NCBI RefSeq assembly: GCF_004364285.1
Contig: NZ_SOBE01000004.1
Coordinates: 1 to 64,000, forward strand
Direction of reading: 5' to 3'
Length of the DNA: 64,000 nucleotides
Source: Frigoribacterium sp. PhB116
GTDB lineage: Bacteria; Actinomycetota; Actinomycetes; Actinomycetales; Microbacteriaceae
The number at the start of each line of letters is the position of its first letter. Position 1 is the stretch's first letter. Of this stretch, positions 16,311 to 23,954 are shown piece after piece. Under the pieces are notes generated by a model. That model did not search any database. It was not told the DNA's origin and saw only the letters and a program-made list of their open reading frames with translations. A program made the translations under genes and the position numbers.

Positions 16311-16636
16311 GACGACGCTCCTGCAGGAGGCGCGGCTGCGGTCGCCGGGGCAGGCAGCGGCGGGTGCATCTCGAGCACGCGCACCGCGCCTCCTGCGTGC
16401 GTCGCCGCGATCGCGACGATCTCGGCCTGCTGCTGCATCGCAGACGTGCAGGCGAAGCCGTAGGCCGCGGCGACGCGCTCGCTGGCGATCTGCAACGCGG
16501 TCGTCGAGCGCTCGACGAACTCGGCGAGCGGGTACTCGGCGCCGGTGACGAGGTGGTCGTGCATCACGAGGCTCGGTGACCAGCACGCGGTCTCGGAGCC
16601 GTCAGGCCAGCGCACCTGGAACGTCATCTCAGGCAC
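16307..16636 (-). CDS. MSMEG_0570-family nitrogen starvation protein
   Basis: This small soluble protein of 109 residues beginning MPEMTFQVRWPDGSE is the hallmark start of the MSMEG_0570 family found only in Nit1C-type clusters. It has a compact alpha/beta core (SLVMHDHLVTGAEYPLAEFV, then a long helix to QIASERVAAAYGFACTSAMQ), with a Pro/Ala-rich tail. GTG 16636 is preferred because it yields the family's MPEM start; ATG 16627 would remove it. The start overlaps the nitrilase stop by 8 bases. No enzymatic motif is visible, so it may be an accessory or substrate-binding component. Confidence 0.88.
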   Translation of the reverse strand: MPEMTFQVRWPDGSETACWSPSLVMHDHLVTGAEYPLAEFVERSTTALQIASERVAAAYGFACTSAMQQQAEIVAIAATHAGGAVRVLEMHPPLPAPATAAAPPAGASS

Positions 16637-17525
16637 GGGCGAGGCTCCTGCCGGCGGCGGAGGCCGCCTCGGCCTCGCCGGTGCGGTACGCGTCGGGCCG
16701 CCGGTCGCGCAGGTGGAACATGCCGCCGCGCATGGCCCGGAAGGTGCCCTCGACGTCGATCTCGGCGATCGCGAGGCCCGCCTCGAGCAGGGTCGTGGCG
16801 AGTACGACGCCGCCGGGGTCGACCACCTTCGCGTTGCCGACGTAGCGGAGCGAGCCGAAGGTGCCGGCCTGGTTCGAGGCGATCCAGAAGACCTGGTTGT
16901 CGAGGGCGCGGGCCGTGTCGAGCAGGTTGAAGCGGTAGGTCCAGCGGTCGTCCTGCAGGTTCTCGGCGGTGGCCGTGCGGGCCACGGGCCAGGCCGACAT
17001 GCTGACGATGATCTCGGCGCCGTCGAGCGCCAGCGACCGGGCCGCCTCCGGGAACGCCTTGTCGTAGCAGATCTGCATGCCGAGGCGGCCGACGGGGGTG
17101 TCGAACGCCTCGTAGACCTCGCCGGCCGAGTACGACATCGCCTCGCCGAGGGGCTGGTGCACCTTGCGGTACGAGCCGTAGATCCTCATGCCGTCGAGGC
17201 AGACCGCGGCGTTGTACCGCGTCTCGCCGTCGTCGGCGAGCTCGCAGAAGCCGATGCAGACGACCATGTCGCCGACGATCTGCTGCACGCGGCGGAGCTC
17301 GGGGCCGTCGAGCGCGACCGCCGGCGGCAGCGAGCGCGTCGTGGTCTTGAGGGTGTCGCCGTGGTTGCCGAGCGACGACAGGTAGCCGCCGATCGCGGCC
17401 TCGGGGAAGACGAGCAGCTGCACGCCGGCCGCCCTCGCCTCGCCGACGAGGGTCTCGATGAGCTCGTAGTTCTGGTCGAGGTCCCGGGTGAAGTTCGCCG
17501 AGACGGCGGCGACGGTCGTCGACAT
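16629..17525 (-). CDS. Nit6803/Nit1-family nitrilase
   Basis: This 298-residue carbon-nitrogen hydrolase should convert a nitrile to a carboxylate and ammonia. The full Glu-Lys-Cys triad is present: E42 in LLVFPEAAIGGY, K121 in SYRKVHQPLGE and C153 in GMQICYDKAFPE. It is the first gene of the leftward Nit1C arm. ATG 17525 has a good ribosome site (AGAGGAGA) and starts MSTTVAAVSANF; an upstream GTG-type extension is Pro-rich and unlikely. Clusters of this type are known from cyanobacterial nitrogen starvation (Sll0784) and, in pseudomonads, were linked to growth on cyanide. A GlnR-type box lies 70 bases upstream of the start. The physiological nitrile is unknown. Confidence 0.92.
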   Translation of the reverse strand: MSTTVAAVSANFTRDLDQNYELIETLVGEARAAGVQLLVFPEAAIGGYLSSLGNHGDTLKTTTRSLPPAVALDGPELRRVQQIVGDMVVCIGFCELADDGETRYNAAVCLDGMRIYGSYRKVHQPLGEAMSYSAGEVYEAFDTPVGRLGMQICYDKAFPEAARSLALDGAEIIVSMSAWPVARTATAENLQDDRWTYRFNLLDTARALDNQVFWIASNQAGTFGSLRYVGNAKVVDPGGVVLATTLLEAGLAIAEIDVEGTFRAMRGGMFHLRDRRPDAYRTGEAEAASAAGRSLARA

Positions 17526-17594
17526 CGTGTCTCCTCTGGTCGGTGGAGGCGGTGGCGCAGGTGCCTGCGGTGCGTCCATCAGACGCCAGGACCT

Positions 17595-17610
17595 GTTTCG
17601 GATTGGTTAC
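17595..17610 (-). promoter_or_regulatory. GlnR-type operator in the Nit1C divergent promoter
   Basis: Read on the - strand, the sequence is GTAAC-N6-GAAAC, exactly the a/b half-site pair of the actinomycete nitrogen regulator GlnR (consensus GTnAC-N6-GAAAC). It lies in the 270-base gap between the nitrilase (start 17525) and the MSMEG_0572 gene (start 17796), in an AT-richer patch. Such a pair is expected about 0.1 times by chance on both strands of this window given its base composition (my estimate). The rest of the gap has no gene; the 17782 AAGGAG is the ribosome site of the rightward gene. Confidence 0.7.
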
Positions 17611-17795
17611 AGCCGGAATAAGAACTCGTGTCGCAGGTCGGGGCCGCAATAGAGAGGCACGATCCGCGACGCCGAAACAAAACGGCGAATCCTCGTAATC
17701 CGCCTGCAACACGGCGGTCGAAGACTCGGGACCAGATCCAGGCACCGCAGTTCGACCGGCACCGTCTCGTCCCGACCCCGCAAGGAGCCCGCACC

Positions 17796-18332
17796 ATGAG
17801 CGACAACGACATCGACTTCGACCAGCAGGTCCTCGACAACATCGAGATCTCCCGCAACGAGATCGCGCACCCCTCGCTGCCGAAGGGGAGCAACATCTAC
17901 GGCTCGACCAAGATCTTCCCCGACTACACGGCCACGAAGGACGAGCACTACTTCCAGCTCGTGCACGGCATCGCCCACGAGTCGTCGGTGAGCTTCGTCG
18001 CCGTGCTGCAGGCGACCAGGGCCCTCCGCAAGGGCTTCACGAGCGTGCTCTACTTCTACGGCCCCGGCTCGATGAACTGCATCGCCAACCGCGGGTTCCC
18101 GACGACGGGCTCGGACGGGTTCCCCGGCGAGAACAACATCAACAACGCGCTCGAGACGTTCATCGCCGAGGGCGGGACGGTGTTCTGCTGTCGATTCGGC
18201 CTCGCGCTGCACGGCAACCGCGAGGAGGACCTGATCGCCGGCGTGATCCCGTGCCACCCCCTCGACGTGCAGGACGCCGTCATCCACTACGCCCGCAAGG
18301 GCGCCATCATCAACAGCACCTACATGGTCTGA
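17796..18332 (+). CDS. MSMEG_0572/Sll0783-family nitrogen starvation protein
   Basis: This 178-residue soluble protein, first gene of the rightward Nit1C arm, has a DsrE/TusD-like alpha/beta pattern: an N-terminal acidic segment, then LVHGIAHESSVSFVAVLQAT, a glycine-rich Tyr-Phe-Tyr-Gly-Pro-Gly-Ser loop with a Cys (FYGPGSMNCIANRGFPT), and GGTVFCCRFGLALHG with paired Cys. ATG 17796 has the ribosome site AAGGAG 9 bases upstream, and the protein reads with the family's usual start. Sll0783 is among the most strongly nitrogen-starvation-induced genes of Synechocystis; its biochemical role is not established. The next gene begins 12 bases after the stop. Confidence 0.9.
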   Translation: MSDNDIDFDQQVLDNIEISRNEIAHPSLPKGSNIYGSTKIFPDYTATKDEHYFQLVHGIAHESSVSFVAVLQATRALRKGFTSVLYFYGPGSMNCIANRGFPTTGSDGFPGENNINNALETFIAEGGTVFCCRFGLALHGNREEDLIAGVIPCHPLDVQDAVIHYARKGAIINSTYMV

Positions 18333-18344
18333 GCCGGTGACCGC

Positions 18345-19460
18345 GTGACGATCACGAACGAGCCGCAGGCCCCCGCGCGCCGCGCCGTGGGCATCTCGAA
18401 CGGCGGGGCGCTCTCCACCCGCGTCGACGTCGCCATCCGCGGCATCCGGGTCGCCGCGCCCGTGCACCGCGAAGGAGGCGCTGGTCCGAGCGACGACGGA
18501 CACGTGCTGTTCCAGGGCCTGCAGTCCGCGATCCCGCAGAGCCAGGACAGTCCGTACCTCGTCGACGACGGGCGACTGCTGCTCGAAGGGGAGGACACGG
18601 GCATCGAGGTCACGCCGGTGGCCCGCCCCCGGTTCTACGACCTGGCGACGGCGGACGGCGTCTCCTACGAGGCGATCGCGCGCCTCCACGGGGCCAAGGT
18701 GCTGGCGACCACCGTCGTCCAGACCTGCGTGCGCTACGACGTCGCCGAGCGCTGCCGGTTCTGCTCGATCGAGGAGTCGCTGAACTCCGGCGCGACCGTG
18801 GCCGTCAAGACGCCGTCGATGATCGCGGAGGTGGCCGAGGCCGCCTGGCGACTGGACGGCGTCGAGCAGATGGTGATGACCACCGGCACCTCGAAGGGGC
18901 GCGACCGCGGCGCGACCCACCTGGCTCGGTGCGTGCGCGCCATCAAGGCCGTGGTGCCCGAGCTCGAGATCCAGGTGCAGTGCGAGCCGCCGGGCGACCT
19001 CACGACGATCACCGACCTGTACGAGGCCGGCGCGCGCTCGATCGGCATCCACGTCGAGTCGATGGACGACGACGTGCGCCGCCGCTGGATGCCGGGCAAG
19101 TCGCGCGTGTCGATGGACGAGTACCGGGCCGCCTGGCGCGAGGCCGTCCGCGTCTTCGGCCGCAACCAGGTCTCGACCTACCTGCTCGTCGGCCTCGGCG
19201 AGGACCCGGACGAGATGGTCGCCGGCGCCCAGGAGCTGATCGACATGGGCGTCTACCCGTTCATCGTCCCGTTCCGGCCGCTGCGCGGGACCCTCGCGAC
19301 CGACGTCGACCACGTGCCCGCGCCGCACGGCTCGGTGCTGCACGACATCACCTTCCGGGTGTCGGAGGCGCTGATCGCGGCCGGCATGAAGGGCACCGAC
19401 CAGAAGGCCGGCTGCGCAGCCTGCGGCGCGTGCTCGGCCCTCCAGACGGCCGGGGGCTGA
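18345..19460 (+). CDS. MSMEG_0568-family radical SAM enzyme
   Basis: This 371-residue biotin-synthase-like radical S-adenosylmethionine enzyme should bind [4Fe-4S] and generate a 5'-deoxyadenosyl radical. The cluster cysteines are C128, C137 and C140 (VVQTCVRYDVAERCRFC), a C-x8-C-x2-C spacing instead of the textbook C-x3-C-x2-C. Downstream are the Gly-rich turn MVMTTGTSKGRDRG and a barrel ending QVQCEPPGDL, and a C-terminal cysteine patch GCAACGACSA that may hold a second metal site. GTG 18345 is the start. It is linked to the GNAT-AIR synthase gene with a one-base gap. It presumably carries out the key carbon rearrangement or cleavage of the Nit1C pathway; the substrate is unknown. Confidence 0.9.
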   Translation: MTITNEPQAPARRAVGISNGGALSTRVDVAIRGIRVAAPVHREGGAGPSDDGHVLFQGLQSAIPQSQDSPYLVDDGRLLLEGEDTGIEVTPVARPRFYDLATADGVSYEAIARLHGAKVLATTVVQTCVRYDVAERCRFCSIEESLNSGATVAVKTPSMIAEVAEAAWRLDGVEQMVMTTGTSKGRDRGATHLARCVRAIKAVVPELEIQVQCEPPGDLTTITDLYEAGARSIGIHVESMDDDVRRRWMPGKSRVSMDEYRAAWREAVRVFGRNQVSTYLLVGLGEDPDEMVAGAQELIDMGVYPFIVPFRPLRGTLATDVDHVPAPHGSVLHDITFRVSEALIAAGMKGTDQKAGCAACGACSALQTAGG

Positions 19461-19461
19461 G

Positions 19462-20889
19462 GTGGCGCTGCTCGACGTGCCCGCCCTGATGGGGCCGCGG
19501 GTCGTCGCGCCGCCCGCCGCGGAGTTCATCGTGGGGGTTGCCGACCGCGCCGAGGTCGAGGCGTACCGACGGCTGCGGCGCGACGCGTTCGTGGACGAGC
19601 AGGGGCTCTTCGAGGGCACCGACCGCGACGAGCTCGACGACGACCCGCGCACCGTCGTGCTCGTCGCTCGCGCTGGCGGAGGCGTCGTCGGCGGGGTGCG
19701 CCTGGCGCCCGTGGGGGAGGAGGACGTCGGCTGGTGGACCGGCTCCCGGCTCGTCGTCGCGCCGTCGGCCCGGAGCGCCCTCGGCGTCGGATCGGCACTC
19801 GTCCGGGCCGCGTCGGCGCTCGCCGAGCAGCTCGGGGTGCTCCGCTTCGACGCGACCGTCCAGGTGCGCTCGTCGGTGCTGTTCCGGCGTCTCGGCTGGG
19901 AGCAGACCGGCCGCTGCGTGATCGGCGGCGTCGACCACCTCCGGATGCGCTGGCCGATCGACCGGCACCAGCGTCTCGTCGACGCGACGAAGTCGCTTCT
20001 CGAGGCCGTGCTCGAGCCGCACACCGCCTGGGCGGCGTCGCCCGACGGATCACTGGGAGGCGCGGGCTGGGTCGGCGACGACGGGGCGCCCGTGCCGGGC
20101 ACCGACGTCGTCGCGGCCTGCGACGCGATCCTGCCCTCGATGGTCGAGCGCGACCCGGAGTGGGCCGGCTGGTGCGGCGTGCTCGTCAACGTCAACGACC
20201 TCAGCGCGATGGGCGCCGCGCCCGTCGGGCTGCTCGACGCGGTGGCGGGCCGCGACGCCGCGTTCGTCCGACGGGTGCTCGCCGGGGTGCGCCGCGGCGC
20301 CGAGGCCTGGGGCGTGCCGTTGCTCGGCGGCCACACGCAGGTCGGGGTGCCGGCCGCGCTCAGCGTCACGGCGCTCGGACGGACGGCCCATCCTGTGCCG
20401 GGCGGCGGCGGCCGGTACGGCGACGCCCTCAGCCTCACGGTCGACGTGAGCGGCTCGTGGCGCGAGGGGCACCACGGCAGCCAGTGGAACTCGACCGAGC
20501 GGCGCCGCTCGCACGAGCTGCGCGACCTCGCGGGCACCGTCGCGCGGGCACGACCCGCGGCGGCGAAGGACGTCAGCATGGCCGGCATCGTCGGCACCGT
20601 CGGGATGCTCGCGGAGGCCAGCGGGTACGGCGCCGTCGTCGACGTAGCGTCCGTGCCGAGGCCGGGCGGCGCCTCCTCGGGGGTGACCGTGGGGGACTGG
20701 CTGAGCTGCTTCCCCGGGTTCGGCATGGTGACGGCAGACCGTCCTGGGGAGTCGCGGATGCACTCGCCGTACGCGGAGACGGCCGAGATCGGCGAACTGT
20801 CGCTGCGGCGTGGGGTCGACCTGCGCTGGCCCGACGGCGAGGTCACGCGTGCGGTCGGCGGCGGTGTGACGGGCCTCGGCCCCGCCTGA
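19462..20889 (+). CDS. MSMEG_0567-type fusion: GNAT acetyltransferase plus AIR-synthase-like domain
   Basis: This two-domain protein of 475 residues has an N-terminal half (~20-170) of GNAT type, with the acetyl-CoA binding stretch SRLVVAPSARSALGVGSALV. The C-terminal half (~190-475) is AIR-synthase/PurM-like, with VNVNDLSAMGAAPVGLLDAV and LLGGHTQVG, and would bind ATP or an amino-imidazole-like ligand. In cyanobacteria these are separate genes (Sll0786, Sll0787); here, as in mycobacteria, they are one chain. GTG 19462 directly follows the radical SAM stop. A likely role is acylation plus ATP-dependent activation or cyclisation of the cluster's intermediate, by analogy only. It ends the rightward arm. 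Confidence 0.9.
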   Translation: MALLDVPALMGPRVVAPPAAEFIVGVADRAEVEAYRRLRRDAFVDEQGLFEGTDRDELDDDPRTVVLVARAGGGVVGGVRLAPVGEEDVGWWTGSRLVVAPSARSALGVGSALVRAASALAEQLGVLRFDATVQVRSSVLFRRLGWEQTGRCVIGGVDHLRMRWPIDRHQRLVDATKSLLEAVLEPHTAWAASPDGSLGGAGWVGDDGAPVPGTDVVAACDAILPSMVERDPEWAGWCGVLVNVNDLSAMGAAPVGLLDAVAGRDAAFVRRVLAGVRRGAEAWGVPLLGGHTQVGVPAALSVTALGRTAHPVPGGGGRYGDALSLTVDVSGSWREGHHGSQWNSTERRRSHELRDLAGTVARARPAAAKDVSMAGIVGTVGMLAEASGYGAVVDVASVPRPGGASSGVTVGDWLSCFPGFGMVTADRPGESRMHSPYAETAEIGELSLRRGVDLRWPDGEVTRAVGGGVTGLGPA

Positions 20890-21168: not shown

Positions 21169-21936
21169 ATGCAGCACACCACCCGGCGCCTCGTGCGCCC
21201 CCGGACGGCCCTGGCCACCGGCGCCCTCGCCGTCGGCCTCGTCGCCCTCGGGAGCGCTCCGGCCCTCGCCGCGCCCGCCCCGATCGCGCCCGGCATCACC
21301 GCCGCGTCGATCACCGCTCCCGCCGCGGCCACGGTCGGCGACGTCGTCGACGCGTCGGTCGCGCTGACCGGCACCAGCGACGTCTACGCGTACGAGCTCG
21401 TGGTCGAGTACGACCCCGCCGTGCTCGACTACGTCGACGGCAGCGCGACCGCGCCCGACGGCGGCTTCGACGCCGTCGACGAGCAGGACGGCACACTCAC
21501 CGTCACGCACACCCGGCTCGGCACCTCACCCGGGCTCGCGGGCGACCTCGCCGTCGACCTGCAGTTCGCCGCGATCGGCGCCGGCGACGGCACGCTCGAC
21601 CTCGCCTCGGTCACGCTCGTCTCCGAGGACGGGCTGACGACGACGCTCGCGGCGCCGTCCACGGCGCCCCTCGCGGTGACGGCCGCCGCAGTGCCCCCGG
21701 TCGACCCGGCACCCGCGCCGGTACCCGACCCGAGCACGCCCGCAGGAGGCGGCACCGCGCCGGTGCCCTCGCCCACGTCCGGCGCGACCGGCGCCTCCTC
21801 GGCCTCGGGGCCCCTGGCCTTCACGGGCTCGGACGCGTTCCCGGGGATCCTCGCGGGCGCCGCCGTGCTGCTCGCCGGGATCGCCGCCGTGGTCGTCGCC
21901 CAGGTGCGCCGCCGCCGCTCGGCGGGCACCCGATGA
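21169..21936 (+). CDS. cell-wall-anchored cohesin-domain protein
   Basis: This 255-residue secreted protein has a signal peptide (cleavage after GSAPALA, ~33), one cohesin-type domain (~38-158: VGDVVDASVALTGTSDVYAY, then ELVVEYDPAVLDYVDGSA, the classical cohesin strand pattern), a Pro/Ser/Thr-rich linker, then LAFTG (216-220), a membrane helix and an RRRR tail. That arrangement is a sortase substrate of the LAxTG class, so the cohesin should be displayed on the wall. ATG 21169 has the ribosome site GAAGGAA. The next gene encodes an amidase with a dockerin, the cognate partner module of cohesins, so this looks like a one-cohesin surface scaffold. Confidence 0.85.
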   Translation: MQHTTRRLVRPRTALATGALAVGLVALGSAPALAAPAPIAPGITAASITAPAAATVGDVVDASVALTGTSDVYAYELVVEYDPAVLDYVDGSATAPDGGFDAVDEQDGTLTVTHTRLGTSPGLAGDLAVDLQFAAIGAGDGTLDLASVTLVSEDGLTTTLAAPSTAPLAVTAAAVPPVDPAPAPVPDPSTPAGGGTAPVPSPTSGATGASSASGPLAFTGSDAFPGILAGAAVLLAGIAAVVVAQVRRRRSAGTR

Positions 21937-21939
21937 GCG

Positions 21940-22000
21940 CGCTCCGCCCCGGCGCCCGCCAGGCGCCGCTCCGCCCCGGCGCCCGCCAGGCGCCGCTCCG
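21940..22000. repeat. 27-bp direct repeat between cohesin and amidase genes
   Basis: Two exact 27-base units (21940-21966, 21967-21993) and 7 bases of a third lie in the short gap between the cohesin stop and the amidase ribosome site. Frame is open through it, but the codons are Arg/Pro/Gln-rich and no ribosome site precedes ATG 21933, so it is read as non-coding. Confidence 0.8.
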
Positions 22001-22064
22001 TGCCGACTCGCCCGGCCACGTCTCGCCCGCCCCCGACTCGACCAGCCACAGGAGGACCTCCCTC

Positions 22065-23954
22065 GTGCCATCCACCCGACGCCGCGCCCTCGCCGCGACG
22101 ACCGTCACCTGCGCCCTCGCGCTCGGCGGGCTCGTGGCCGTCCCGGCCGCGAACGCCGCTGACGCAGCCGCAGGCACCGACACCGCCGCCGCGGCAGCGC
22201 CCGCGCCCGCGCCCGCCGCCGGCACGTTCCTCGCCCCGTACTGGGTCGAGCTCGACCTGACCGGCGACCGCCAGGTGACGGCCGACGACCTCGAGGTGCT
22301 GAGCTCGGCGCTCGGGGCGACCAGCGCCTCCCCGGCGTGGGACCAGGTCGCGGTCGCCGACACGGACGCCGACGGCGTGGTCACCGTCTCGGACGTCGCC
22401 GCCCTGTCGCAGCGCATCGTCTACGACGACGGCCCCTTCGAGATCGTCGAGGCGTCGGTGGTCGAGATGCAGGCCGCCATGAACGCCGGGGTCACGACCT
22501 CGGTCGAGCTCACGCAGGTCTACCTCGACCGCATCGCCGCCTACGACACGGCCAAGGTCGACCCGGCGTCGAACGGGCGCCCGCTGCGCTCGATCATCAC
22601 GACCAGCACGGTCGCGCTCGCCGCGGCCGCCGAGGCCGACGCGACCCGCGCCTCCGACGGGATGACCGACATGCTGCTCGGCGTGCCGATCGCGGTGAAG
22701 GACAACTACGACACGGTCGACATGCCGACCACCGGCGGCTGCGGCTGCTGGGACGGCAACCAGACCACGACCGACGCGGCCATGGTCGCCGGGCTGCGGG
22801 CGTCGGGCGCCGTGATCCTCGCGAAGGCGAGCCTCGACGAGTTCGCGTTCGGCTTCGCGTCCGAGTTCTCGTCGTACCAGCCCGCCGGCACGAGCACGCT
22901 CGTCGCCAGCCCCTACGTCACCAGCCAGACGGCCGGCGGCTCGAGCGGCGGCACCGGGGCGGCGATCGCGGCGAACCTCGCCGGCATCGGGTTCGGCACC
23001 GACACGGGCGGCTCGATCCGCATCCCGTCGTCGTTCAACCAGCTCGTCGGCGTCCGCCCGACCGTGGGCCTCGCGAGCCGCGACGGCATCATCCCGCTCG
23101 CCCTCTCGCAGGACACCGGCGGCCCGATCGCCCGCACCGTCACCGACGCGGCCGTGGCGCTCGACTCCGTCACCGGCGTGGACGCGGCCGACCCGGTCAC
23201 CGCCGAGCAGCAGGGCCTCGTGCCGGAGTCGTACACGAGCTTCCTCGACGCGGACGCCCTCGCCGGCACCCGCATCGGCTACGTGACGTCGATGGTCAGC
23301 ACCAACCGGACCACCGCTCGGCTCTTCGCGGAGGCGCTGGTCACCCTGCAGGCGCAGGGCGCGACGGTCGTCCCGATCTCGGCGCCGCCGAGCGGCTTCG
23401 TCGCCGTGCTCGCCGAGGGCAGCGGCAGCACGAACGAGTTCAAGCACGACCTCGACGCCTACGTCGCGAGGCACCTGGCGCCGAACGTCGAGGCGCGCTC
23501 GCTGCAGGGCGTGCTGGCGTCGGGCAAGTACGTGCCGTCGCGGGCCGGCACCTACCGGTCTCGCGACGCCGTCACCGAGGCGACCTACCAAGGGTGGGCG
23601 GGCCCGACCGGCACGCACACCACGGCCATCGCGAACGGGCACGCCCTGGTCACGGCGATGCTGGAGGACCAGGACCTCGACACGCTGATCTACCCGTCGG
23701 GCAACCCCTACGCCGCGTTCAGCACGAACATGCGCCTCAGCCCCAACACGGGCATGCCGGCCGTGACGGTCCCGATGGGGCAGGCGACCGACGCGGACGG
23801 CACCGTCACCGGCGCCGGCGTCAACCTCGAGTTCCTCGGGCGGGACTACGCCGAGGGCGACCTGCTCGGCCTCGCCTACGCGTTCGAGCAGGCCACGGGT
23901 CCGTCGCAGTCGCGCACGGCGCCGGGCTTCTACGGCCCGCTGCCCGCGGGCTGA
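22065..23954 (+). CDS. secreted amidase with N-terminal dockerin
   Basis: This 629-residue exported amidase-signature hydrolase has a signal peptide (~1-31, VPAANAA), a dockerin type I module (~64-118) and an amidase domain (~120-629). The dockerin has two EF-hand-like Ca loops: D64-LTG-D68, ending D75, and D99-T-D101-A-D103-G, ending D110. The Ser-cisSer-Lys triad is intact: K212 in GVPIAVKDNYD, S293 in GGSSGG and S317 in FGTDTGGSIRIPS. GTG 22065 is the start because of a perfect AGGAGG nine bases before it and the clean signal peptide; ATG 21933 is an upstream alternative. It should release ammonia from an extracellular amide while docked on the neighbouring cohesin. Confidence 0.88.
   Translation: MPSTRRRALAATTVTCALALGGLVAVPAANAADAAAGTDTAAAAAPAPAPAAGTFLAPYWVELDLTGDRQVTADDLEVLSSALGATSASPAWDQVAVADTDADGVVTVSDVAALSQRIVYDDGPFEIVEASVVEMQAAMNAGVTTSVELTQVYLDRIAAYDTAKVDPASNGRPLRSIITTSTVALAAAAEADATRASDGMTDMLLGVPIAVKDNYDTVDMPTTGGCGCWDGNQTTTDAAMVAGLRASGAVILAKASLDEFAFGFASEFSSYQPAGTSTLVASPYVTSQTAGGSSGGTGAAIAANLAGIGFGTDTGGSIRIPSSFNQLVGVRPTVGLASRDGIIPLALSQDTGGPIARTVTDAAVALDSVTGVDAADPVTAEQQGLVPESYTSFLDADALAGTRIGYVTSMVSTNRTTARLFAEALVTLQAQGATVVPISAPPSGFVAVLAEGSGSTNEFKHDLDAYVARHLAPNVEARSLQGVLASGKYVPSRAGTYRSRDAVTEATYQGWAGPTGTHTTAIANGHALVTAMLEDQDLDTLIYPSGNPYAAFSTNMRLSPNTGMPAVTVPMGQATDADGTVTGAGVNLEFLGRDYAEGDLLGLAYAFEQATGPSQSRTAPGFYGPLPAG

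What the first reader, a model, noticed from the sequence alone, without database searches (positions are those of the whole stretch)
21169..23954. Adjacent wall-anchored cohesin and dockerin-bearing amidase: a one-enzyme surface complex
Seen: a secreted cohesin-domain protein with an LAFTG anchor is followed, in the same direction, by a secreted amidase whose N-terminus carries both Ca-loops of a type I dockerin (D64...D75 and D99...D110). Known: cohesin-dockerin pairs build cellulosomes by tight Ca-dependent binding; both modules also occur outside cellulose degradation. Inferred: the amidase is pinned to the cell wall by its neighbour, giving an ammonia-releasing surface complex. Cohesin-dockerin recruitment of an amidase for nitrogen scavenging is, to my knowledge, undescribed.
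Basis: partly seen in the sequence, partly recalled or inferred. Interest (0 to 1): 0.85.

Follow-up and report, generated by a model that had tools for sequence, protein, structure and literature searches.

The report
Wall-anchored cohesin paired with dockerin amidase
Two overlapping neighbour genes encode a wall-anchored cohesin and a secreted amidase that carries a dockerin, and because the two are found together in many actinobacteria they look like a one-enzyme surface complex, a use of cohesin and dockerin outside fibre degradation.

Summary
Window 21169-21936 encodes a secreted cohesin protein (Pfam 41.3 bits, cut-off 24.1; AlphaFold pLDDT 94.7; the 28 best PDB matches are cohesin entries) with a curated LAVTG-type sorting signal. 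The overlapping gene (to 23954) encodes a secreted Dockerin_1 plus amidase-signature enzyme, closest in the PDB to peptide amidase. Pfam finds each module once in the genome. The pairing is not chance: of 44 distinct dockerin-amidases examined, 43 have a cohesin next door or fused (the other is cut by a contig end); 0 of 60 dockerin-less relatives in a capped list do. Order can be reversed, two lineages fused the genes in opposite orders, and in 36 of 38 cohesin-first loci the frames overlap (ATGA/GTGA). Flanking genes differ. Three Paenibacillus relatives carry SLH domains instead. Best reading: a one-cohesin, one-enzyme surface complex. Binding was not shown: the fusion model failed, a mirror-tree test was inconclusive, and seven Nocardioides-type cohesins lack a wall anchor. 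Nitrogen scavenging is not supported: among the loci compared, the nitrogen-starvation cluster adjoins the pair only in the window and one close relative. Substrate unknown.

The parts
21169..21936 (+). Cohesin-bearing surface protein, 255 aa, stop codon TGA included
   Evidence: Pfam Cohesin 41.3 bits; only Pfam cohesin match in the genome
21169..21273 (+). Signal peptide (about residues 1-35, ends ...SAPALAA)
   Evidence: Read from the translation, no signal-peptide program run; a hydrophobic segment precedes the cohesin in 42 of 43 distinct homologues by a hydropathy scan
21271..21705 (+). Cohesin domain as modelled
   Evidence: AlphaFold2 pLDDT 94.7, pTM 0.88; Foldseek best hits 2w1n, 2xdh, 2jh2, 2vo8, all cohesins
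21814..21933 (+). LAFTG sorting signal, hydrophobic stretch and Arg tail
   Evidence: NCBIfam NF058582 Microco_LAVTG 27.4 bits, cut-off 27; LxxTG plus hydrophobic tail in 34 of 43 distinct homologues by script, 35 with G348 counted by eye
21933..21936 (+). ATGA: start of the amidase frame overlaps the cohesin stop
   Evidence: ATGA/GTGA overlap in 36 of 38 cohesin-first loci (copies included), TGATG in the other two; same frame relation in 33 of 33 distinct loci
21933..23954 (+). Dockerin-amidase gene (stop included); alternative start GTG at 22065
   Evidence: SD-like aggagg at 22050-22055 before the GTG
22254..22418 (+). Dockerin type I domain
   Evidence: Pfam Dockerin_1 over cut-off; only such match in the genome
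22254..22289 (+). Calcium loop 1, DLTGDRQVTADD
   Evidence: Positions 3 (T) and 12 (D) the same in 44 of 44 distinct rows; position 1 D in 42, position 5 D in 43
22359..22394 (+). Calcium loop 2, DTDADGVVTVSD
   Evidence: Positions 1 and 12 D in 44 of 44; position 3 D in 42, position 5 D in 40
22443..23951 (+). Amidase-signature catalytic region
   Evidence: PF01425 E 7.5e-71; best PDB match peptide amidase 1m21/1m22, E 5e-69
22698..22700 (+). Putative catalytic Lys codon
   Evidence: Invariant column K160 of the 23-row alignment A2; aligned with a Lys of 1m21. That this is the catalytic Lys is recalled
22941..22943 (+). Putative catalytic cis-Ser codon
   Evidence: Invariant column S241 of A2; role recalled from peptide amidase
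23013..23015 (+). Putative nucleophile Ser codon
   Evidence: Invariant column S265 of A2; 24 residues after the cis-Ser, as in the aligned 1m21; role recalled

Best explanation
A self-contained two-gene surface module. [quoted passage not shown] Gene 2, whose frame overlaps the stop of gene 1, makes an exported amidase-signature enzyme whose N-terminal, calcium-loop dockerin binds that cohesin. The result is a one-receptor, one-enzyme complex that holds a peptide-amidase-like hydrolase at the surface, where it would cleave amides and release ammonia. Shown here: domains, sorting signal, near-exclusive pairing, frame overlap, fusions, conserved calcium loops and catalytic residues. Inferred: the binding itself, its calcium dependence, coupled translation, sortase attachment, and the substrate class.
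For: Domains over curated cut-offs and a confident cohesin model. One cohesin and one dockerin by Pfam in this genome. 398 family genomes: cohesin in 20, dockerin in 25, both in 18 at E 0.001 (overlap counted by hand; Fisher p 1e-23, not corrected for kinship); after reading the flanks, 26 genomes have a dockerin-amidase, 25 with the cohesin adjacent or fused and one split over two contig ends. 80 named loci (capped list): 20 with dockerin, of which 18 with the cohesin adjacent or fused and 2 cut by contig ends; 60 without dockerin, 0 with cohesin. Of 49 complete pairs, copies included, 9 are in reversed order and 2 are fused, in opposite orders (G348 and Nocardioides daeguensis). Overlapping frames in 36 of 38 cohesin-first loci. 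Flanking genes mostly differ between genera and the amidase tree does not follow families. Three of three Paenibacillus relatives scanned carry SLH, another surface anchor. In the genus the amidase is in the same 3 of 16 genomes as the cohesin and dockerin.
Against: No binding was measured or modelled: the AlphaFold model of the natural fusion was poor (pLDDT 59, pTM 0.43). The mirror-tree test is inconclusive: partial r 0.37, just above the highest of 43 amidase control blocks (0.35), over all 43 pairs, but 0.13, below at least 19 of the 43 control blocks, in 33 cohesin-first pairs (the long-branched cohesin-first L067 left out too). The dockerin profile's best PDB matches are calmodulins. 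All 7 cohesins from Nocardioides and family f34 lack a sorting signal, so wall anchoring is not general; the window's own signal clears its cut-off by only 0.4 bits. One class-level cohesin (G701) has no dockerin-amidase within the 14 kb fetched. G330 and G367 each hold a second dockerin protein, so one enzyme per genome is not strict.
Confidence: 0.8

Rival explanations
1. Same complex, but a nitrogen-scavenging device tied to the neighbouring nitrogen-starvation (Nit1C-like, name recalled) cluster: the surface amidase frees ammonia for uptake.
For: MSMEG_0572, 0568 and 0567 family genes lie just upstream at 17628-20889, and an amidase can release ammonia.
Against: That adjacency is seen only in the window and G015 among the 48 loci compared. 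In the genus, MSMEG_0567 is in 5 of 16 genomes and the cassette in 3 of 16, only two shared; G001 has the cassette without it.
Confidence: 0.12
2. The EF-hand-like domain is not a recruiting dockerin but a structural calcium module of the enzyme, and the neighbouring cohesin-fold protein serves something else.
For: The dockerin profile's best PDB matches are calmodulin EF-hands; the interface model failed.
Against: Dockerin_1 matches all 24 domains scanned at E up to 1 and beats the EF-hand models in the window's row; presence of the domain goes with an adjacent or fused cohesin in 43 of 44 distinct cases and its absence with none in 60; fused twice.
Confidence: 0.07
3. The pair makes soluble or head-to-tail assemblies (cohesin of one molecule to dockerin of the next, or intramolecular in fusions) rather than a wall-bound complex.
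For: 7 of 7 cohesins from Nocardioides and family f34 have no sorting signal; one of them, L090, ends in a below-cut-off Ig-like match; in two lineages both modules lie in one frame.
Against: 34 of 43 distinct cohesins have LxxTG plus a hydrophobic tail by script (35 with G348 by eye), and the window's reaches a curated sorting-signal model; three dockerin-less Paenibacillus relatives carry SLH.
Confidence: 0.12

Closest known systems
Clostridium perfringens non-cellulosomal single cohesins (X82 of NagJ/GH84C and of GH33) and their dockerin partners
   Same: Closest solved relatives of the cohesin by profile (2jh2, 2o4e, 2w1n, 2ozn) and among the best by fold (2w1n, 2jh2, 2vo8): single cohesins outside cellulose degradation; five single-Coh proteins in ATCC 13124 (passages of PMC12997984).
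   Different: There the modules belong to several proteins, glycoside hydrolases and toxins among them (same passages); here a dedicated wall-anchored receptor and one amidase in overlapping genes of Actinobacteria.
Anchoring scaffoldins of cellulosomes (nonSLH-anchoring class; sortase-attached in Ruminococcus)
   Same: Cohesin plus a wall-binding motif such as a sorting signal, receiving dockerin proteins (sections 6 and 15 and passages of PMC11557425).
   Different: One cohesin and no other Pfam domain in the protein, one non-carbohydrate enzyme, no multi-cohesin scaffoldin; that survey required a multi-cohesin protein and so would not have listed this.
Stenotrophomonas peptide amidase (1m21/1m22, 5ac3; organism recalled)
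   Same: Best PDB matches of the enzyme, E 5e-69 and 1e-66; Lys and Ser residues aligned.
   Different: The match begins after the dockerin (query residue 124); the substrate of the window enzyme is untested.
Paenibacillus SLH-amidases (L098, L102, L103)
   Same: Homologous amidase (42-44% identity in the best segment) with an SLH domain over cut-off.
   Different: Surface attachment by SLH in the same chain instead of a separate cohesin; no dockerin found.
Archaeoglobus fulgidus non-cellulosomal cohesin (2xdh)
   Same: Second-best fold match, a cohesin labelled non-cellulosomal by its depositors.
   Different: Archaeal; its neighbours and partners were not examined here.
Cellulosimicrobium cellulans F16 'cellulosome-like' complex
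   Same: Actinobacterial multienzyme complex in a genus where this cassette also occurs (C. funkei U11, L082).
   Different: Its authors report no cohesin or dockerin domain in that genome (passages of PMC4562250).

Membership tests
Cohesin domain | Sequence over the Pfam cut-off | tested here: met
   41.3 bits against 24.1; 16 of 19 domains scanned match Pfam Cohesin at E up to 0.01
Cohesin domain | Beta-sandwich fold of solved cohesins | tested here: met
   All-beta model, pLDDT 94.7; 28 best PDB hits are entries of cohesins or their complexes, TM up to 0.76/0.81 with 2vo8
Type I dockerin | Two calcium loops, over the Pfam cut-off | tested here: met
   29.1 bits against 22.9; 24 of 24 domains match at E up to 1; loop acids conserved in 44 distinct rows
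Type I dockerin | Closer to dockerins than to general EF-hands | tested here: inconclusive
   Pfam prefers Dockerin_1 in the window's row (29.1 against 16.3 bits for EF-hand_7), but the PDB profile search ranks calmodulins first
Type I dockerin | Binds a cohesin, calcium dependent | not testable with these tools
   Fusion model failed; no binding assay
Cellulosome | Multi-cohesin scaffoldin | tested here: not met
   One Pfam cohesin match in the genome
Cellulosome | Several dockerin enzymes acting on polysaccharides | tested here: not met
   One Pfam dockerin match in the genome, on an amidase
Sortase-attached surface protein | Sorting signal over a curated cut-off, sortase in the genome | tested here: met
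   NF058582 27.4 bits against 27; three sortase matches over cut-off
Sortase-attached surface protein | Covalent link to the wall | not testable with these tools
   Needs fractionation or a sortase deletion
Amidase signature family | PF01425 match and conserved Lys-Ser-Ser | tested here: met
   239.9 bits; K160, S241, S265 invariant in 23 rows; roles of these residues recalled
Peptide amidase | Hydrolyses C-terminal peptide amides | not testable with these tools
   Nearest PDB relative only; best NCBIfam amidase model at 330.7 bits, under its cut-off of 534
Nit1C-like nitrogen-starvation cluster | Constant linkage with MSMEG_0567/0568/0572 genes | tested here: not met
   Linked only in the window and G015 among 48 loci; in the genus 5 of 16 have MSMEG_0567, 3 of 16 the cassette, 2 both

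The most novel reading that the evidence does not exclude
A minimal, mobile, one-receptor/one-enzyme cohesin-dockerin system for fixing a non-carbohydrate enzyme on the surface of Actinobacteria, kept as a pair by overlapping genes and twice fused, with calcium allowing the enzyme to be let go. It would show that cohesin-dockerin docking serves as a general plug-and-socket outside polysaccharide degradation.
Probability: 0.6. Interest if true: 0.72.

Novelty: new variant of a known kind. Interest (0 to 1): 0.62.

Why it matters
Cohesin-dockerin docking is mostly studied in multi-enzyme fibre-degrading machines. Here the same plug and socket appears in its simplest form, one receptor for one enzyme, on an amidase, in Actinobacteria of several families. 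It gives a small system in which partner choice, calcium control and surface retention can be tested directly, possible new docking pairs for engineering, and a route to the unknown substrate of a conserved secreted amidase.

Tried and rejected
(1) Complex modelling: the tools fold one chain only, so the natural Nocardioides daeguensis fusion L092 was folded from alignment A8 (22 rows, three of them other amidases). Mean pLDDT 59, pTM 0.43: no use for the interface.

(2) Mirror-tree coevolution of cohesin and dockerin: partial r 0.37 over all 43 pairs but 0.13 in 33 cohesin-first pairs (that subset also left out the long-branched L067); inconclusive.

(3) Idea that the amidase is Tat-exported and therefore cannot be sortase-anchored itself: not supported. 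RR in the n-region in 32 of 43 for both proteins; strict Tat motif 4 of 43 amidases against 3 of 43 cohesins, loose motif 6 against 2.

(4) Nitrogen-starvation link: rejected as a general feature.

(5) EF-hand rival: not fully excluded by sequence.

(6) Rows dropped before counts: G274's 86-aa dockerin frame at a contig end and G778's weak cohesin (E 6e-4, 29 profile positions) were not counted as cassettes; L075 and L078 (cut by contig ends) were not among the loci given; six rows were removed as copies at 97% identity. G001's cohesin was missed by the 398-genome run though found in the genus run, so survey counts are lower bounds. The named list was capped at 80 of 580 confirmed stretches, best first, and leaves out near relatives of the window.

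(7) Genus of the window: not named by any tool. The family is Microbacteriaceae by contig-length matches of G112 (Mycetocola saprophilus) and G153 (Agreia sp. Leaf283). Family f34 is unnamed; I label it Nocardioidaceae because its cohesins resemble those of the named Nocardioides, which is an inference.

(8) Literature: the paper on non-cellulosomal cohesin- and dockerin-like modules in the three domains of life, and the NagJ/NagH complex paper, are recalled, not read.
Full report
WHAT IS THERE. At 21169-21936 (+) lies a 255-aa protein with a signal-peptide-like N-terminus, a cohesin domain, a Pro/Ser/Thr-rich linker and a C-terminal LAFTG, hydrophobic stretch and Arg tail. Pfam Cohesin scores 41.3 bits against a cut-off of 24.1. 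Pfam covers only part of the domain, so the fold was checked: AlphaFold2 on a 19-row alignment gives pLDDT 94.7 and pTM 0.88, an all-beta domain, and the 28 best PDB matches are entries of cohesins or cohesin complexes, led by C. perfringens GH84C and Archaeoglobus fulgidus; YcnI and integrin chains follow with weaker E-values. A profile of 26 relatives also finds the C. perfringens NagJ cohesin first, E 1.7e-9. The tail just reaches NCBIfam's LAVTG sorting-signal model (27.4 against 27), and the genome has three sortase matches over cut-off.

The next gene ends at 23954. It encodes an apparently exported protein with Dockerin_1 (24.8 bits in the whole protein; 29.1 on the excised domain) followed by an amidase-signature domain (240 bits). 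The nearest solved enzyme is peptide amidase (1m21/1m22, E 5e-69). The Lys and two Ser that align with its catalytic residues (roles recalled) are invariant in 23 relatives. Pfam finds no other cohesin or dockerin in the genome.

IS THE PAIRING REAL? In the genus, 3 of 16 genomes have the cohesin, the same 3 have the dockerin and the same 3 have the amidase at E 1e-60. In 398 genomes of the family, Pfam at E 0.001 finds cohesin in 20, dockerin in 25, both in 18 (Fisher p 1.3e-23, kinship not corrected). Reading the flanks with profiles of my own and by eye gives 26 genomes with a dockerin-amidase. Twenty-five have a cohesin adjacent or in the same frame; in G168 the two genes end two different contigs. 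Eight of the 26 had looked single because one partner was not picked up there.

A scan of named genomes with the dockerin-amidase alignment kept the best 80 of 580 confirmed stretches. Twenty carry the dockerin (Curtobacterium, Mycetocola, Microbacterium, Frigoribacterium, Agreia, Leifsonia, two Microbacteriaceae named to family only, Cellulosimicrobium, Cellulomonas, Oerskovia, Oceanitalea, Nocardioides). Eighteen have the cohesin next door or fused and two are cut by contig ends. Of the 60 dockerin-less relatives in the list, 0 have a cohesin in the DNA held; 48 of the 60 have at least 1.5 kb on both sides. In a class-wide sample of 394 genomes, cohesin occurs in 10 and dockerin in 4 by Pfam; after reading flanks, 8 of the 10 have the dockerin-amidase beside the cohesin, G701 does not within 14 kb, and G778 is a weak match. 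Together, 50 dockerin-amidases reduce to 44 distinct ones; 43 have a cohesin and the last (L084) is cut by a contig end.

HOW THE GENES ARE TIED. Of 49 complete pairs (copies included), 38 have the cohesin first, 9 have it second and 2 are fused. In 36 of the 38 the amidase frame opens with ATGA or GTGA over the cohesin stop, and in the other two with TGATG. Of the 9 reversed pairs, 5 overlap in the same way. In 33 of 33 distinct cohesin-first loci the frame relation is the same although the spacer to the signal core varies. This suggests that the spacer is translated and that translation is coupled. An internal start with a Shine-Dalgarno-like site is also common (23 of 33, against 13 of 33 at the overlap), so which start is used is open; in the window these are 21933 and 22065.

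The fusions are opposite in order: cohesin-then-amidase in G348 and amidase-then-cohesin in Nocardioides daeguensis; they lie apart in the amidase tree, so they look independent. In G348 a second signal-like segment lies between the parts, so it may still be made as two proteins. The genes around the pair mostly differ from genus to genus and the tree does not follow families: the starred branches force at least two changes for the group I call Nocardioidaceae and three for Microbacteriaceae, with the warning that the long row L067 is unsurely placed. The two genes stay together while their surroundings change.

WHERE IT SITS. By script, 34 of 43 distinct cohesins have LxxTG plus a hydrophobic tail; G348, cut short by the script, makes 35 by eye. 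G145 has only a hydrophobic tail. The other 7, all from Nocardioides or the unnamed family f34, have neither; one of them (L090) shows an Ig-like Big_3_5 match below its cut-off. So wall anchoring is likely in the window and its relatives but is not the invariant; the docking pair is. Independently, 3 of 3 Paenibacillus homologues scanned, all without dockerin, carry an SLH domain over cut-off, an S-layer anchor: a related enzyme is held at the surface by other means.

WHAT IT PROBABLY DOES. The cohesin receives the dockerin and keeps the amidase at the cell surface. Binding, calcium dependence and sortase attachment are inferred. Calcium binding is plausible since the loop acids are nearly invariant. 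The substrate is unknown; a peptide-amidase-like activity is the best guess. The neighbouring nitrogen-starvation genes (MSMEG_0572, 0568, 0567 families) are not a constant companion: of 16 genomes in the genus, 5 have MSMEG_0567 and 3 have the cassette, two in common. The nitrogen-scavenging story is therefore only one possibility.

RESULTS AGAINST. The fusion model was unusable. The mirror-tree test was inconclusive. The PDB profile search for the dockerin returns calmodulins first, so sequence alone does not separate dockerin from EF-hand as cleanly as Pfam does. Two genomes, G330 and G367, have a second dockerin protein of about 1250 aa, so the receptor may serve two enzymes there.

KNOWN OR NEW. 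Single cohesins outside cellulosomes are known in C. perfringens (passages of PMC12997984). Wall-anchored cohesin proteins are a known scaffoldin class (PMC11557425, passages and sections 6 and 15 seen); that survey required a multi-cohesin protein and would not have listed this pair. The C. cellulans F16 'cellulosome-like' complex is reported to lack cohesin and dockerin (passages of PMC4562250). In the open-access library I searched cohesin+dockerin+amidase+sortase, cohesin+dockerin+Microbacteriaceae (one paper, whose only mention is general), peptide amidase+dockerin (none), dockerin+Curtobacterium (one review, listing only) and related terms. No title or abstract start in these listings describes this pair; most listed papers were not opened, two listings showed only part of the matches, and subscription papers are not covered. 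I rate it a new variant of a known kind: it works like a one-enzyme anchoring scaffoldin but fails the defining features of a cellulosome.

Noticed in passing
L077:5333-9109 (G330) and L076:3969-7691 (G367): A second dockerin protein of about 1250 aa in two genomes that carry the cassette, with the dockerin mid-chain. For L077 the 400 residues after it match PDB 7tem (putative exported protein YPO2471, E 2e-34) and the dockerin stretch weakly matches 2jnk/2ozn (E 0.007); L076 was not searched in the PDB.
   Followed up: partly
L176:6374-7525 (G701): A cohesin protein without a dockerin-amidase in the 14 kb fetched, directly downstream of an M28 peptidase gene in which Pfam finds no dockerin.
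   Followed up: partly
window 21942-22001: A 27-bp tandem duplication in the spacer just after the cohesin stop, read in the amidase frame as a repeated LRPGARQAP; the close relative G015 has no second copy in its frame.
   Followed up: no
L098, L102, L103: Paenibacillus homologues of the amidase with an N-terminal SLH domain over cut-off, an alternative surface anchor for a related enzyme.
   Followed up: partly
L117, L122, L144: Four or five related amidase-family frames within 8.5 to 13.5 kb in three proteobacterial MAG contigs.
   Followed up: no
window 16629-20889: Nitrogen-starvation cluster: MSMEG_0572, 0568 radical SAM and 0567 families, with a carbon-nitrogen hydrolase on the other strand that stays far below the Nit6803-nitrilase cut-off (40 against 503 bits).
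   Followed up: partly
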